A stretch of 64,000 nt of DNA from Legionella sp. (lineage in GTDB: Bacteria; Pseudomonadota; Gammaproteobacteria; Legionellales; Legionellaceae): assembly GCA_013911415.1 (NCBI GenBank), contig JACETI010000001.1:186001-250000 (forward strand), in the 5' to 3' direction. Of this stretch, positions 56,815 through 62,802 are shown piece after piece (the stretch's first letter is position 1; each line of letters starts with the position of its first letter). Below the pieces are notes generated by a model that saw only the letters and a program-made list of their open reading frames with translations, was not told the DNA's origin and did not search any database. Made by a program: the position numbers and the translations under genes.

Positions 56815-59073
56815 ATGACTCCTATGACCTTCTCATCATGCGCTGCCGTGGCTAGTTTTTTATACCAAAGAGAGCAACAGATTTCCTCCAATAGATTTGA
56901 GGAAAACATTATGCATGCTTATGCACGAATGTTTTTGGAGGAATTTATGAATCTATGGCCGACCATAGAGACTCAATCGGAAGCTGAACAAGCATTGGCA
57001 GTTCGTTCTTTTCTATTAAGGAACCAAAAATTTATACTTGAGCACTTTAAATCCTATGCTGCTTTTCCTCTCGATTTAATTCGTCCGTTGTTGTTTGCTC
57101 TGACTCGCTGCGTTGTTGTAGTTATGAATGATACAGATGATGTCTTCGGATGCTTAGATATCTTAATACCCCCGGGTTCAATATCATTTGATGGAGAATT
57201 TGCCTATCTATATGATATATTTTCAAATGAGACATACGAGCGATCAGAGTTCCCTAAATCTTTACAATTCAAATTTAAATTGACGTCAAAACTCATTGAA
57301 CTGTTGCAAGTAAAGTATGAATTTTCTTCTTTTATGGATCTACGGATCTTTTCAACCCTACCAACCGATGAGATTTATCAAATATTGCTTGAGCAGCCTG
57401 CTGTACATCAGCAAATTTTAAATGAGCTTGGTAATATAAATGTGTTCTCACATTTTTGCAAAAAATTCTCGGCAGATAAATTGAAAGGCTATTTACCTCT
57501 ATTGCCATCACTGATTGCCACTATTGTTCGCTCTCACACCGATATTATTGTTTTGCTCAATGAACTTGATGATGAGAAAACAGCCCTAATCATTCAAGCT
57601 GCTTCTAAAAAGTTCTCAAAGCTTATTACGGATTGGCAAACTTTAAATGCAGTTAGCTTCCATTTAAGACCCGCTCAAAACTTAGCGTTGATGACCTCGC
57701 TATCTGAGGTCTTGCTTTCTTGTAGATATGATGATCTTTCATTTCGATCACTGCTTCGTTATGGCAACGATCGTGAACACACACAGCTATTAGAATTAGT
57801 AGCACCTCATTTACCGCAACACCTTCTATCACAACAACAGCTGCGTACTTTTTTACGTTTAGTCCGTTCATGTAATCGATTGTTCATTTTGAGATCTGTC
57901 CGTGAAAAGTTGCCTGGGTTAATTACCAAATTATCTGAACTTACTGAACTTTTGCATGAGTTAGATACGCCTGGCCAGTATAAATTACTTGAGGCGCTTG
58001 ATGGTCATTTATCAAAAATAATAAACAATAAAATTCAATTGGAACGACTTTTAGATGCCCTGAGCATCCAACAACCTGCTATTACGCTACAAGCTTTGGG
58101 AGAGGAATTGCCCTCTCTCATTGACAAGGTTTTTTTAGAGGAACTTAAGACACTTTACTTACCGACGCAGTCATATGATCAACATCTATGTTTCATTGAT
58201 TTGAGCGGTATTCTCAAGTTACTCTCACCAGAGCAGTGTGATCAGGTATTGCGAGAGCTGCACTGCCTCCCTCTACTCTTTCCTCATGTCATCGATGTAA
58301 CAGAGACCCTAAAAGAACTATCGCTTGAAAATGGCAAGCAATTTATGAAACACATTCGATTATTAGATGAAGAGGGAAAGCTAAAACATCTGAATAAAGA
58401 GTATAGAGAAACTGAAGAGCTTGCGAATGCGATGCGTCATTTCTCGATGGAACAATCTAAGCTTTTCATTGAAGCATTGAATTTAAAACCTATCATTATG
58501 TCCAGTAACCATTCATTGAGTGAATTTTTGAGCCAATTAACCAGTGAAAGAGGCCTAGAAATATTGAAGATTCTTGGAAATGACTCCTTAAAATATTATA
58601 AAGGAGGCGACAAATTCTTCAAACATTTGAAAACCTTATCGATCGTTGAAAGTAATGACGTATTTGAGGCCTTAGTCGATGCAATCGACGCCCTTCTGAA
58701 AGGAACTTATCAGCACGACAATGCTTTTCCTAGCTTATCCAATCAAGAACGCGCCCTAGCGTATCATGTTCTTTTAGAAATGCTACCTCGCTTTATTCGT
58801 AATCAATCCCAGCTCGTTCATACCTTCCAATCTTTACCTGCCTCGCTATGTGGAGAACTGCGATTAAAGATGAAAAGTTTGAAGGTATATGAAAATAATT
58901 CTCAGCGTCTAATCGATGTCCTAAAAGATGAACCAGAAAAAATCAGTATCCTTCAACAAAAAGAACAATCTAATTTTCTAAGTTCACTGAATCCCTTCAA
59001 TTTTTTTTCGGGAGGGGAACAAAAAAAGGATGTTGTTGCAGATATCCGAGAGCCCTTACTGCCTAAATATTAA
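56815..59073 (+). CDS. Helical solenoid protein, putative effector
   Basis: A 752-residue protein that I do not recognise. About residues 240-440 contain roughly six degenerate repeats of 31-34 residues with the pattern L..L......hh..h...LP.LI.....L (for example ELLHELDTPGQYKLLEAL and RLLDALSIQQPAITLQAL). The C-terminal part (about 459-717) is paralogous to the next gene. An acidic-dileucine-like end (IREPLLPKY) closes it. No signal or membrane helix. AAGGA lies eight bases before the ATG. A scaffold-type host-interaction protein is a guess from architecture. Confidence 0.65.
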   Translation: MTPMTFSSCAAVASFLYQREQQISSNRFEENIMHAYARMFLEEFMNLWPTIETQSEAEQALAVRSFLLRNQKFILEHFKSYAAFPLDLIRPLLFALTRCVVVVMNDTDDVFGCLDILIPPGSISFDGEFAYLYDIFSNETYERSEFPKSLQFKFKLTSKLIELLQVKYEFSSFMDLRIFSTLPTDEIYQILLEQPAVHQQILNELGNINVFSHFCKKFSADKLKGYLPLLPSLIATIVRSHTDIIVLLNELDDEKTALIIQAASKKFSKLITDWQTLNAVSFHLRPAQNLALMTSLSEVLLSCRYDDLSFRSLLRYGNDREHTQLLELVAPHLPQHLLSQQQLRTFLRLVRSCNRLFILRSVREKLPGLITKLSELTELLHELDTPGQYKLLEALDGHLSKIINNKIQLERLLDALSIQQPAITLQALGEELPSLIDKVFLEELKTLYLPTQSYDQHLCFIDLSGILKLLSPEQCDQVLRELHCLPLLFPHVIDVTETLKELSLENGKQFMKHIRLLDEEGKLKHLNKEYRETEELANAMRHFSMEQSKLFIEALNLKPIIMSSNHSLSEFLSQLTSERGLEILKILGNDSLKYYKGGDKFFKHLKTLSIVESNDVFEALVDAIDALLKGTYQHDNAFPSLSNQERALAYHVLLEMLPRFIRNQSQLVHTFQSLPASLCGELRLKMKSLKVYENNSQRLIDVLKDEPEKISILQQKEQSNFLSSLNPFNFFSGGEQKKDVVADIREPLLPKY

Positions 59074-59106
59074 ACAATATTGATCTTATTTTCTGGAATT
59101 TCATTC

Positions 59107-60129
59107 ATGCAATCTAAATCGGAACAGCAGACTTACAATTATAACCGCCCAGGCATCACCGACCAAGACGTAGCTCTGCAGCTGCCTATTGTCGATATAA
59201 ACAGCCTTCGTATTGTATTGATGTTATTGGCACCTCAGCAATGTGCAGAGAGGCTGAAAAATTTTCACAAATTACCGCTCATTGTACGAAGCATCTTCGA
59301 CATCACCGCAGTACTTCGAAACTTACCTGTTGAAAACGGAAAGGTGTTTATCCAGCACCTAGGGAAGTTCAAAAAAACACGCAGATTTAAACGCTTAAAC
59401 AAAGAATGGTTAGACTGTGTCTCGCTCGCTTTTGCGCTACGTGATCTATCGCCAGCACAGTGTAAACTCGTCCTCGATGAATTCGATATTAGACCAAAAA
59501 TTATCCATAACCAACCTGGGCTTGCCGATCTTATTACCTGGGTGAATGCCGAATTACACGCACCCCTTGTGAAAATACTCGGTCCTAAACTTCTTCCCGT
59601 CTTCAAGGAAGGTGATAAACTGCTACAGTTTTTAAACGATTTACCTGTACGTGAGCGCAAACCATTTTTTGAATCATTTTGCGATACTCTAGAGACGATA
59701 TGCCAAGGCAACTATTCACATGAAAAAACATTTACGACCTTTAATCACCAACAACGAGCACTCATTTTCAGAGTGATGCTGGACATTACTGTCCCTCTCG
59801 TTATCCGTTCGCCGATGGATTTTATGGATATATTTAAAACTTTGCCACCGTCCTTAGATGAAGATTCCCTAGATAAAATAGACCATGAATTTTATCAAAC
59901 TCTGTATAAAGAAGAAGCCATCAATCTCTTGTGGAGTGAGCCAGAAAAAATCAATATTTCTAGGCAACAAGAAAAAAACATAGTGCCAGAATTACCTGAT
60001 TTATATACATTTTTCTCTCATTTGAGAAAGCCTTCTCCCATTCCTCTTCAGGAGCAAGAAGAGCTGTCGGAAATGCCAGACCTATATTTCACTAAAGATG
60101 AGCGTTCATCGAATGGGAATGTGATTTAA
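59107..60129 (+). CDS. Paralogue of the C-terminal half of the preceding protein
   Basis: A 340-residue protein. About residues 27-300 align along their length with residues 459-717 of the preceding one: LAPQQCAERLKNFHKLPLI against LSPEQCDQVLRELHCLPLL, LPVENGKVFIQHL against LSLENGKQFMKHI, and EPEKINISRQQEK against EPEKISILQQKEQ. It lacks the N-terminal solenoid. ATG at 59107 is chosen over an in-frame TTG at 59080. Only 33 bases separate the genes, so they are probably co-transcribed. Its 3' end overlaps the convergent next gene by 24 bases. Confidence 0.65.
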   Translation: MQSKSEQQTYNYNRPGITDQDVALQLPIVDINSLRIVLMLLAPQQCAERLKNFHKLPLIVRSIFDITAVLRNLPVENGKVFIQHLGKFKKTRRFKRLNKEWLDCVSLAFALRDLSPAQCKLVLDEFDIRPKIIHNQPGLADLITWVNAELHAPLVKILGPKLLPVFKEGDKLLQFLNDLPVRERKPFFESFCDTLETICQGNYSHEKTFTTFNHQQRALIFRVMLDITVPLVIRSPMDFMDIFKTLPPSLDEDSLDKIDHEFYQTLYKEEAINLLWSEPEKINISRQQEKNIVPELPDLYTFFSHLRKPSPIPLQEQEELSEMPDLYFTKDERSSNGNVI

Positions 60130-61476: not shown

Positions 61477-61503
61477 AACACTTAAGTTAGGTAGGGAGAC
61501 TTT

Positions 61504-62802
61504 ATGCGTTCATCTTTACGAAATTTTTTGGGCCCCCTGTTGCTGATTCTGCTCTGCCCACCCTTTGTCATGCTCATGTGGTACACCAATACCCAGCTTG
61601 GTGGTTCACTCTCAACAATGTTTGCACAAATTCAAGCGCAGGGTTTATGGACAGCTATCCATCAAGTAGCAAGTCCGTATTGGTTAGGCTCAACGCTAGC
61701 GTGGAAAATGATTACTGGGTTTATCTGTTTTGAGTTGCTCCTCATGCGCTTTCTACCCGGCAAAATATTTCAAGGCCCTCTTACCCCGAAGGGTAATACA
61801 CCCATCTATAAAGAAAATGGTTTATCCGCTTTTCTAATAACCATGGGCTCTTTTTGTTTTGCCAGCTTTGGCTTAAACCTCTTTTCTGCAAGTGTATTGT
61901 ATGATCATTTAGGGGCTTTGTTAGGCGCACTTAACCTTTTTAGTCTTATTTTCTGCGGCTTACTTTATTTCAAGGGACGTTATTTTCCTTCTTCTACCGA
62001 TTCAGGGATCACTAAAAATCCTTTATTTGATTATTACTGGGGCACTGAACTCTATCCTCAAGTGGGTGGTTGTCATCTCAAAAAATTGATTACTTGTCGT
62101 CTTGGCATGATGAGCTGGGGATTATTATTGCTATCTTACGCTGCAAAACAAATTGAATTAAATGGTGAACTTTCAAACGCCTTGTTGATTTCAGTTTTAC
62201 TGCAATTTTTTTACCTAACAAAATTCTTTATCTGGGAAAAAGGTTACCTACGATCACTAGATATCATGCATGATCGTGCTGGTTTTTATATTTGCTGGGG
62301 TTGTCTTGTCTGGGTGCCTTGTATCTATACATCCCCAAGCATGTACCTTGTTCTCCATCCGATCCAACTCAGCGAAGGCCTAGCCATCAGCATTTTACTT
62401 TTAGGTAGTATCAGCATTCTGATTAATTACCTGGCCGATCGACAACGTTTGTTTATCCGTTCCACACAAGGTCAATGTAAAATCTGGGGTAAAACGCCCA
62501 TTGTGTTGCCCGCACATTACACAACTCAAGAGGGTGCTCGAAAAGAAACACTTTTATTAGCTTCCGGATGGTGGGGTGTGGCACGGCATTTTCATTATGT
62601 TCCAGAAATTGCCGCCGCATTTTTATGGTCGCTTCCAGCGCTTTTTACCCATTTTGCACCGTATTTTTATGTGTCCTTTCTAACAATACTCTTGATAGAT
62701 CGCGCTTTCAGAGACGATCAACGGTGCGCAGCGAAGTACAAGGAGTATTGGAATGACTACTGTAACCTCGTCCCTTACAAGATTATTCCTTATGTACTCT
62801 AA
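61504..62802 (+). CDS. Sterol reductase of the ERG4/ERG24 (DHCR7-like) family
   Basis: A 432-residue polytopic membrane protein of about nine to ten helices. It carries family signatures of eukaryotic delta-7/delta-14 sterol reductases: NPLFDYYWGTELYPQVG, HDRAGFYICWGCLVWVPCIYTSPSMYLV, SGWWGVARHFHYVPEI, and the C-terminal DRAFRDDQRCAAKYKEYWNDYC with LVPYKIIPYVL. These enzymes reduce a sterol double bond with NADPH. Coxiella burnetii and some amoeba symbionts carry such genes although they make no sterols, so host sterol modification is the likely role. AGGGAG lies six bases before the ATG. Confidence 0.9.
   Translation: MRSSLRNFLGPLLLILLCPPFVMLMWYTNTQLGGSLSTMFAQIQAQGLWTAIHQVASPYWLGSTLAWKMITGFICFELLLMRFLPGKIFQGPLTPKGNTPIYKENGLSAFLITMGSFCFASFGLNLFSASVLYDHLGALLGALNLFSLIFCGLLYFKGRYFPSSTDSGITKNPLFDYYWGTELYPQVGGCHLKKLITCRLGMMSWGLLLLSYAAKQIELNGELSNALLISVLLQFFYLTKFFIWEKGYLRSLDIMHDRAGFYICWGCLVWVPCIYTSPSMYLVLHPIQLSEGLAISILLLGSISILINYLADRQRLFIRSTQGQCKIWGKTPIVLPAHYTTQEGARKETLLLASGWWGVARHFHYVPEIAAAFLWSLPALFTHFAPYFYVSFLTILLIDRAFRDDQRCAAKYKEYWNDYCNLVPYKIIPYVL

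What the first reader, a model, noticed from the sequence alone, without database searches (positions are those of the whole stretch)
61504..62802. DHCR7-like sterol reductase in a bacterium without visible sterol synthesis
The protein has the full ERG4/ERG24 signature set including the HDRAGFYICWGCLVW block and the C-terminal DD..C..KY..YW motif. This is typically a eukaryotic enzyme. Coxiella has similar genes thought to be acquired from a host. It lies within a run of putative effectors.
Basis: partly seen in the sequence, partly recalled or inferred. Interest (0 to 1): 0.72.

Follow-up and report, generated by a model that had tools for sequence, protein, structure and literature searches.

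The report
Sterol reductase in a Legionella relative
This gene encodes an enzyme that reduces a double bond in sterols; it is a further copy of a gene already known in Legionella and other bacteria that live in amoebae, kept although the bacterium makes no sterols, so it most likely acts on sterols of its host.

Summary
In detail: 61504-62802 (+) is an intact 432-aa ORF matching Pfam PF01222 over nearly its whole length (E 1.2e-68). The genome belongs to Legionellaceae, in a genus of its own among the genomes listed. It has one such gene and no match to squalene synthase, squalene/oxidosqualene cyclase or emopamil-binding isomerase. [quoted passage not shown] It is not an isoprenylcysteine methyltransferase. 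The find is not new: DHCR7 in Legionella drancourtii, with a proposed plant origin and host-cholesterol role, was published in 2009; Coxiella has a homologue. What I add: 58 of 143 Legionellaceae genomes carry the type (55 full length, 3 broken or partial). The 25 Legionellaceae rows of my tree form one clade (100/96), and six close pairs show strong purifying selection. So this copy is an old family gene rather than a recent host acquisition. The same clade reaches Chlamydiota, Bacteroidota and Myxococcota, including two Bacteroidota bins with an oxidosqualene-type cyclase. Most likely role: NADPH-dependent reduction of host delta-5,7 sterols such as amoebal ergosterol. That role is inferred, untested here.

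The parts
61504..62802 (+). DHCR7-type sterol reductase ORF, 432 aa plus stop
   Evidence: ORF; PF01222 E 1.2e-68; 63-72% identical to the 26 other full-length DHCR7-type genes fetched from Legionellaceae genomes; trees
61493..61498 (+). AGGGAG, ribosome-binding-type sequence 5 nt before the ATG
   Evidence: read from the sequence; no test of function
62212..62214 (+). codon of Tyr237, aligned with MaSR1 Tyr241 (proposed proton donor)
   Evidence: Y in 46 of 46 aligned proteins; role of Tyr241/Asp363 from PMC12489058 (passages)
62587..62607 (+). codons of His362-Phe-His364-Tyr-Val-Pro-Glu368, aligned with MaSR1 H357-N359-D363 (NADPH and catalytic positions)
   Evidence: H362 and H364 in 46 of 46, E368 in 45 of 46
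62701..62739 (+). stretch with codons of Arg400, Arg403, Asp404, Lys411, Tyr412, aligned with MaSR1 R395, R398, D399, K406, Y407 (cofactor end)
   Evidence: R400, R403, K411, Y412 in 46 of 46, D404 in 40 of 46 (H in 6); role of N359/R395 from PMC4951196 (passages)

Best explanation
A membrane-embedded, NADPH-dependent sterol reductase of the DHCR7 (delta-7) type, inherited within Legionellaceae. By analogy with MaSR1 and ERG24, NADPH would enter from the cytoplasmic side and the sterol from the membrane; Tyr237 would give the proton and NADPH the hydride, reducing the C7 double bond of a delta-5,7 sterol. Since the cell appears unable to make sterols, the substrate must come from the host: for an amoebal host such as Acanthamoeba, ergosterol, giving a brassicasterol-type product. 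The effect would be to change the sterol composition of the bacterial or vacuolar membrane. Shown: family, residue conservation, absence of key pathway genes, clade, purifying selection. Inferred: delta-7 specificity, host substrate, location, benefit.
For: Nearly full-length PF01222 match. Residues aligned with the MaSR1 catalytic pair Y241/D363 are Y237/E368, and R400, R403, D404, K411, Y412 are kept (roles from passages). Identity 49% to the recalled plant DHCR7, 38% to recalled human DHCR7, 36% to MaSR1, 27-30% to the second Legionellaceae type. Tree: recalled plant DHCR7 plus all bacterial DHCR7-type rows one group at 100/100, apart from MaSR1 and the second type. The published tree put the L. 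drancourtii homologue in the DHCR7 cluster, and it is transcribed (PMC2667531). No pathway genes. dN/dS 0.013-0.094 in 6 of 6 close pairs tested. Ergosterol is the main sterol of Acanthamoeba castellanii (PMC5557935, abstract and passages). A DotI/IcmL gene of a type IVB secretion system is present, consistent with a host-associated life.
Against: No activity, sterol profile or host is known for this organism. The Coxiella relative Stmp1 is described as having broad specificity, and no cholesterol production by it was detected during infection (PMC8787468, passages), so homology may mislead about the substrate. CBU1158, the delta-7 homologue in Coxiella, has no shown activity. The plant and human references are recalled sequences, and the human one and MaSR1 are long branches. 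Four active-site columns differ from the only solved bacterial enzyme found, and Asp404 is His in 6 of 46 relatives. No structure could be predicted.
Confidence: 0.68

Rival explanations
1. Sterol reductase of another or loose regiospecificity (delta-14, delta-24, or several bonds), still acting on host sterols.
For: PF01222 covers all three activities (established knowledge of the family); best solved match is a delta-14 reductase; Stmp1 is described as having broad specificity (PMC8787468).
Against: Identity and tree place it with the recalled DHCR7s, away from MaSR1 and the second type; same placement published for L. drancourtii.
Confidence: 0.17
2. A step of a native sterol pathway made by unknown enzymes.
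For: Related genes occur in bins with squalene synthase and oxidosqualene-type cyclase (two Bacteroidota); bacterial sterol pathways do use unrelated enzymes at C-4 (PMC10202945, passages). This genome has one P450 and one FA_hydroxylase protein.
Against: No squalene synthase and no cyclase in a 98% complete genome; 0 of the 7 same-family genomes in those searches, own included, has a cyclase.
Confidence: 0.03
3. It serves redox or oxysterol handling: using NADPH to reduce sterols or oxysterols that would harm the bacterium, not to remodel membranes.
For: Coxiella work links Stmp1 to cholesterol and 25-hydroxycholesterol levels in infection (PMC8787468, passages); an oxidative-stress role is suggested in PMC8290121 (passages).
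Against: The Stmp1 data concern the other, delta-24 type; nothing here separates the two readings.
Confidence: 0.1
4. A passenger gene from lateral transfer without present function.
For: Patchy presence (58 of 143 Legionellaceae genomes), no conserved neighbours of the window copy, some broken copies.
Against: Intact ORF; dN/dS 0.013-0.094 in 6 of 6 pairs of relatives (the window copy itself was not in a pair); Y237, H362, H364 kept in 46 of 46 proteins over several phyla.
Confidence: 0.02

Closest known systems
Legionella drancourtii sterol delta-7 reductase (PMC2667531, parts 1 and 2 of 3 of the text read)
   Same: Same enzyme type in the same family of bacteria; lateral origin and a host-sterol role already proposed; transcribed there.
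   Different: The paper held it to be the only Legionella with the gene; here it is widespread in the family and in a further genus. That protein itself was not aligned here.
Coxiella burnetii CBU1158 (delta-7 homologue) and Stmp1/CBU1206 (delta-24 homologue) (PMC8787468, passages)
   Same: Orphan sterol reductases in an intracellular bacterium without the pathway.
   Different: Stmp1 is the other subtype, active in yeast and needed for normal intracellular growth; CBU1158 activity unknown. Neither sequence was fetched.
Plant sterol delta-7 reductase DWF5
   Same: 49% identity and the same four cofactor-site residues, on a sequence recalled from memory.
   Different: Works in a complete sterol pathway in plants (recalled); the bacterial rows form their own group (97/94).
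MaSR1, delta(14)-sterol reductase of Methylomicrobium alcaliphilum, PDB 4quv
   Same: Same family, aligned catalytic Tyr and most cofactor residues.
   Different: 36% identity; N316, K319, N359, D363 replaced by D, R, H, E; comes from a sterol-making bacterium.
DHCR7 homologues in sterol-producing myxobacteria (Nannocystis, PMC10152446, passages)
   Same: Bacterial DHCR7 named by homology.
   Different: There within a proposed native pathway; sequence not compared here.

Membership tests
ERG4/ERG24 (PF01222) sterol reductase superfamily | Full-length profile match over curated cut-off | tested here: met
   232.3 bits vs 27, profile 22-432 of 432
ERG4/ERG24 (PF01222) sterol reductase superfamily | Catalytic Tyr and acidic residue, NADPH-site Arg/Asp/Lys/Tyr | tested here: met
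   Y237, E368, R400, R403, D404, K411, Y412; Asp to Glu at the acidic position, as in the recalled plant enzyme
Sterol delta-7 reductase (DHCR7/DWF5) | Groups with DHCR7, not with C14 or C24 reductases | tested here: met
No proven C24 reductase was in the tree.
Sterol delta-7 reductase (DHCR7/DWF5) | Reduces the C7 double bond of delta-5,7 sterols | not testable with these tools
   needs an enzyme assay or sterol profile
Isoprenylcysteine methyltransferase | ICMT/PEMT profile match in a short protein | tested here: not met
   no such Pfam match at E<=0.1 for the window protein; the 227-aa relative L010 does match PEMT and ICMT
De novo sterol biosynthesis enzyme | Squalene synthase and oxidosqualene cyclase in the same genome | tested here: not met
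Type IVB secreted effector | Translocated into host by Dot/Icm | not testable with these tools
   a DotI/IcmL gene is present; Stmp1 is reported not to be secreted that way

The most novel reading that the evidence does not exclude
One clade of plant-like DHCR7 is a shared host-sterol tool of unrelated amoeba-associated bacteria (Legionellaceae, Coxiellaceae-like, Chlamydiota). It was passed among bacteria and may have come from sterol-making Bacteroidota or Myxococcota rather than from plants or amoebae, and it turns amoebal ergosterol into delta-5 sterols in the vacuole or bacterial membrane.
Probability: 0.25. Interest if true: 0.55.

Novelty: new member of a known kind. Interest (0 to 1): 0.25.

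Why it matters
An enzyme for one late step of a pathway that the cell lacks points to use of host sterols. Its spread over 58 of 143 Legionellaceae genomes, with strong purifying selection in the six pairs tested, says that the activity is worth keeping, which the 2009 single-species report could not show. The wider clade, with members in bins that have squalene synthase and an oxidosqualene-type cyclase, reopens the published view that the bacterial gene came from plants or amoebae. For this window itself the gene is an ordinary member of a described family.

Tried and rejected
Giant-virus relatives: two scans of viral contigs and the phage collection gave none; the Mimivirus homologue is known to me here only from PMC2667531. 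Plasmids: one distant hit, in Planktothrix. Synteny: neighbours of the window gene have no relatives in 34 Legionella-type flanks (some flanks are short); at most 10 of the 34 share any one neighbour with each other. Promoter/terminator scan: promoter-like sites at chance level, 4 found against 4.2 expected; terminator-like 3 against 1.8. Isoprenylcysteine methyltransferase: rejected. Native sterol pathway: rejected. Recent host acquisition: disfavoured for this copy, because it lies in a Legionellaceae clade (100/96; 100/99) and because GC of the ORF, 41.6%, is close to that of the window, 41.1%; its third-position GC, 39.0%, is a little above four other genes of the window, 30.4-37.1%. Origin: holding the plant and human rows together against the bacteria was rejected (p-AU 0.012), but these are two recalled sequences, and the human one is on a long branch, so the direction of transfer stays open. 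Myxococcales cyclase type: the frame that I scanned gave no match and was probably not the matching one, so only the Pfam cyclase match stands for that genome.

Rows dropped: one search found 105 relatives and returned 80. L067, L051 and L064 (broken or partial) were left out of both large trees. The careful tree (72 rows) leaves out 16 of the 88 rows of the quick tree: 15 with close relatives left in, and L089, a long branch. The 25-row Legionellaceae group was named after the quick tree had been seen; three of its rows (L015, L028, L029) bear only wider names (Proteobacteria, Gammaproteobacteria). For the flank analysis 34 Legionella-type loci were used. The subtype count in 143 genomes rests on bit-score bands (211-244 against over 400) plus the identities of the fetched loci. 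Three of 58 are broken or partial (G031 over two contigs, G177 in two pieces, G106 partial). The 22 handles hold at least one genome twice (G022 and G058). The name C24-like for the second type is mine, from its higher PF01222 score and a recalled ERG4 motif; no proven C24 reductase was compared.

Full report
WHAT IS THERE. The ORF at 61504-62802 (+) is intact, 432 aa, starts with ATG and follows an AGGGAG stretch 5 nt upstream. It matches PF01222 nearly over its full length (232.3 bits, E 1.2e-68) and, in solved structures, MaSR1 of Methylomicrobium alcaliphilum (4quv, E 6.4e-69) and a second delta(14)-sterol reductase (9l5r, 3.8e-33). NCBIfam gives no match at E<=1. Both neighbours lie on the other strand, so it is probably a single-gene transcript (inference).

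WHOSE GENOME. The window is part of contig 1 of a 2.5-Mb, 15-contig genome, 98.33% complete. A same-family genome, G022, gives the same coordinates and score for PepN as the genome behind my Legionella jamestowniensis locus (G058), and its contig length, 2,329,967, is that of the L. jamestowniensis record. So the family is Legionellaceae. No other listed genome bears genus code g1 (61 genomes without a match were not listed). PepN of the window is 57-67% identical to those of the 10 same-family genomes searched. A DotI/IcmL gene is present.

NO STEROL PATHWAY. In the whole genome: PF01222 1 gene; PF00494 squalene/phytoene synthase 0; PF13243 cyclase 0; PF05241 EBP 0; PF08491 one 20-bit match, with E. 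coli also ringing; one P450 of 405 aa (86 bits) beside a 261-aa protein that by eye resembles a TauD-type dioxygenase; one FA_hydroxylase-family protein. Among the 22 handles (at least one genome is there twice), squalene/phytoene synthase matches occur in 5 and a cyclase in 3: one Myxococcales and two Bacteroidota bins. For the Bacteroidota G069 and G068, in this order, the cyclase scores 718 and 710 bits to the squalene/oxidosqualene model and 717 and 708 to the oxidosqualene model (below its cut-off of 851), against 269 and 299 to hopene cyclase (below its cut-off of 431); their squalene synthases score 447 and 458 (cut-off 287). So relatives of the gene occur in bins that may make sterols, while the window genome shows no such pathway. 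None of the 7 same-family genomes in those searches (own included) has a cyclase.

WHICH REDUCTASE. Identity of the window protein is 49% to Arabidopsis DWF5, 38% to human DHCR7, 36% to MaSR1 and 27-30% to two proteins of a second PF01222 type of other Legionellaceae. They behave as published: recalled DWF5 is 52-53% identical to two Legionella copies (published 52.03% for L. drancourtii), and recalled human DHCR7 is 39% identical to MaSR1 (published 37%). In the careful tree of 72 rows the recalled plant enzyme and all bacterial DHCR7-type rows form one group at 100/100, and the bacterial rows without it one group at 97/94. MaSR1 and the second type lie outside. Aligned with MaSR1, the proposed proton donor Y241 is Y237 and D363 is E368; R395, R398, D399, K406, Y407 are kept. 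MaSR1 N316, K319, N359, D363 become D312, R315, H364, E368, the same letters as in the recalled plant enzyme; the second type also has His at 364. In 46 bacterial proteins Y237, D312, R315, H362, H364, R400, R403, K411 and Y412 are the same in 46 of 46, E368 in 45, R361 in 42, D404 in 40.

HOW OLD AND HOW COMMON. Of 143 held genomes of the order, own included and all of one family where listed, 62 have a PF01222 match. By bit-score band, 55 have a full-length DHCR7-type gene, 3 a broken or partial one, 4 the second type (one of these, G170, has both), and G153 only a short methyltransferase-like match. Apart from the window's own gene (L001) and the truncated G031 gene (65%), the 26 DHCR7-type genes fetched by these searches are 63-72% identical to the window protein. 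The 25 Legionellaceae-type rows form one clade, 100/96, with the window inside smaller supported sets of 17 and 18. In 16 genomes, trees of PepN and of the reductase both separate Legionellaceae from six other bacterial bins at 100 and share the groups G028+G005 (99/99 and 94/91) and maioricensis+(tucsonensis, steelei) (98/93 and 92/95). The places of the window, L. jamestowniensis and G031 are unresolved in the PepN tree, so agreement is shown only for those groups. Close pairs give dN/dS 0.013, 0.045, 0.048, 0.062, 0.068 and 0.094 (6 of 6 tested; the window copy is too far from the others to be one of them). GC of the ORF is close to that of the window (41.6 and 41.1%), while third-position GC, 39.0%, is slightly above four other window genes, 30.4-37.1%. 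The copy is therefore best read as an established family gene under selection.

BEYOND THE FAMILY. The genome scan found 105 relatives, 80 returned: Legionella and unnamed kin, Chlamydiota, a Coxiellaceae bin and other gammaproteobacterial bins, Myxococcales, Bacteroidota, Verrucomicrobiota. Most of those outside Legionella are metagenome bins, which can hold stray contigs. In the quick tree Bacteroidota form one group (100) and Chlamydiota need 3 changes. Deep branches among phyla are weak (10/3 and 71/65), so the order of transfers is not resolved. In Bacteroidota 5 of 6 loci examined share two downstream genes, and 2 of 6 have a P450 next to them.

WHAT IS IN PRINT. Moliner et al. 2009 (PMC2667531; parts 1 and 2 of 3 of the text read) described the gene in L. 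drancourtii, its transcription, a plant origin and a possible role in host cholesterol parasitism, and held other Legionella to lack it. PMC3220658 (passages) and PMC3423634 (passages) add Naegleria and exchange with amoebae; PMC3220658 also names L. longbeachae as an exception among bacteria. PMC8787468 (passages) names Coxiella CBU1158 as the delta-7 homologue, activity unknown, and Stmp1 as the active delta-24 homologue. PMC9666466 (passages) reports chlamydial sterol reductases. PMC10152446 (passages) names DHCR7 in Nannocystis. PMC12507675 (listing only; could not be opened) holds the words DHCR7, Legionella, Waddlia and Protochlamydia and may contain an expression test of bacterial enzymes. 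I saw no paper giving the family-wide count in Legionellaceae in the listings; these cover open-licence papers only, and most listed papers were not opened.

MECHANISM. The best reading is reduction of the C7 double bond of host delta-5,7 sterols with NADPH. Acanthamoeba castellanii has ergosterol as main sterol (PMC5557935, abstract and passages; the earlier-reported 7-dehydrostigmasterol would be a delta-5,7 sterol too). That ergosterol would give a brassicasterol-type product follows from the chemistry and is my inference, as are the location and the benefit. No structure could be predicted.

VERDICT. Confirmed observation, interpretation largely right in enzyme type but already published; a new member of a known kind. 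Interest 0.25.

Noticed in passing
NZ_LR882940.1 (Planktothrix agardhii plasmid p2) 36556-59122; L145, L147: A plasmid-borne cluster that looks like a sterol pathway: squalene/phytoene synthase family, squalene-oxidase-repeat protein, FAD monooxygenase, four P450 features, three Rieske proteins, SDR, emopamil-binding protein, and a relative of the window protein annotated hypothetical (29.6% identity).
   Followed up: partly
L002, L102, L103, L104 (G011, G080, G088, G170): Four of 143 Legionellaceae genomes carry a second PF01222 type (over 400 bits; C24-reductase-like by a recalled motif only); G170 has both types, as Coxiella is reported to have.
   Followed up: partly
L067 (Legionella tunisiensis), G031, G177: Copies of the reductase that look broken: two stops in the matched stretch of L067; G031 gene ends at a contig end with its tail on another contig; G177 in two pieces.
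   Followed up: no
window 56815-59073 and 59080-60129: Two adjacent genes encode paralogous proteins (32% over 269 aa) with no Pfam or NCBIfam family over cut-off.
   Followed up: no
G057:C2:615494-616099 (L095): The Legionella massiliensis genome has a squalene/phytoene synthase match (79 bits, partial) that the window genome lacks.
   Followed up: no
L127:1408-3407 (own genome C1, near 357 kb): A P450 directly beside a protein that by eye resembles a TauD-type dioxygenase; possibly a small operon.
   Followed up: no
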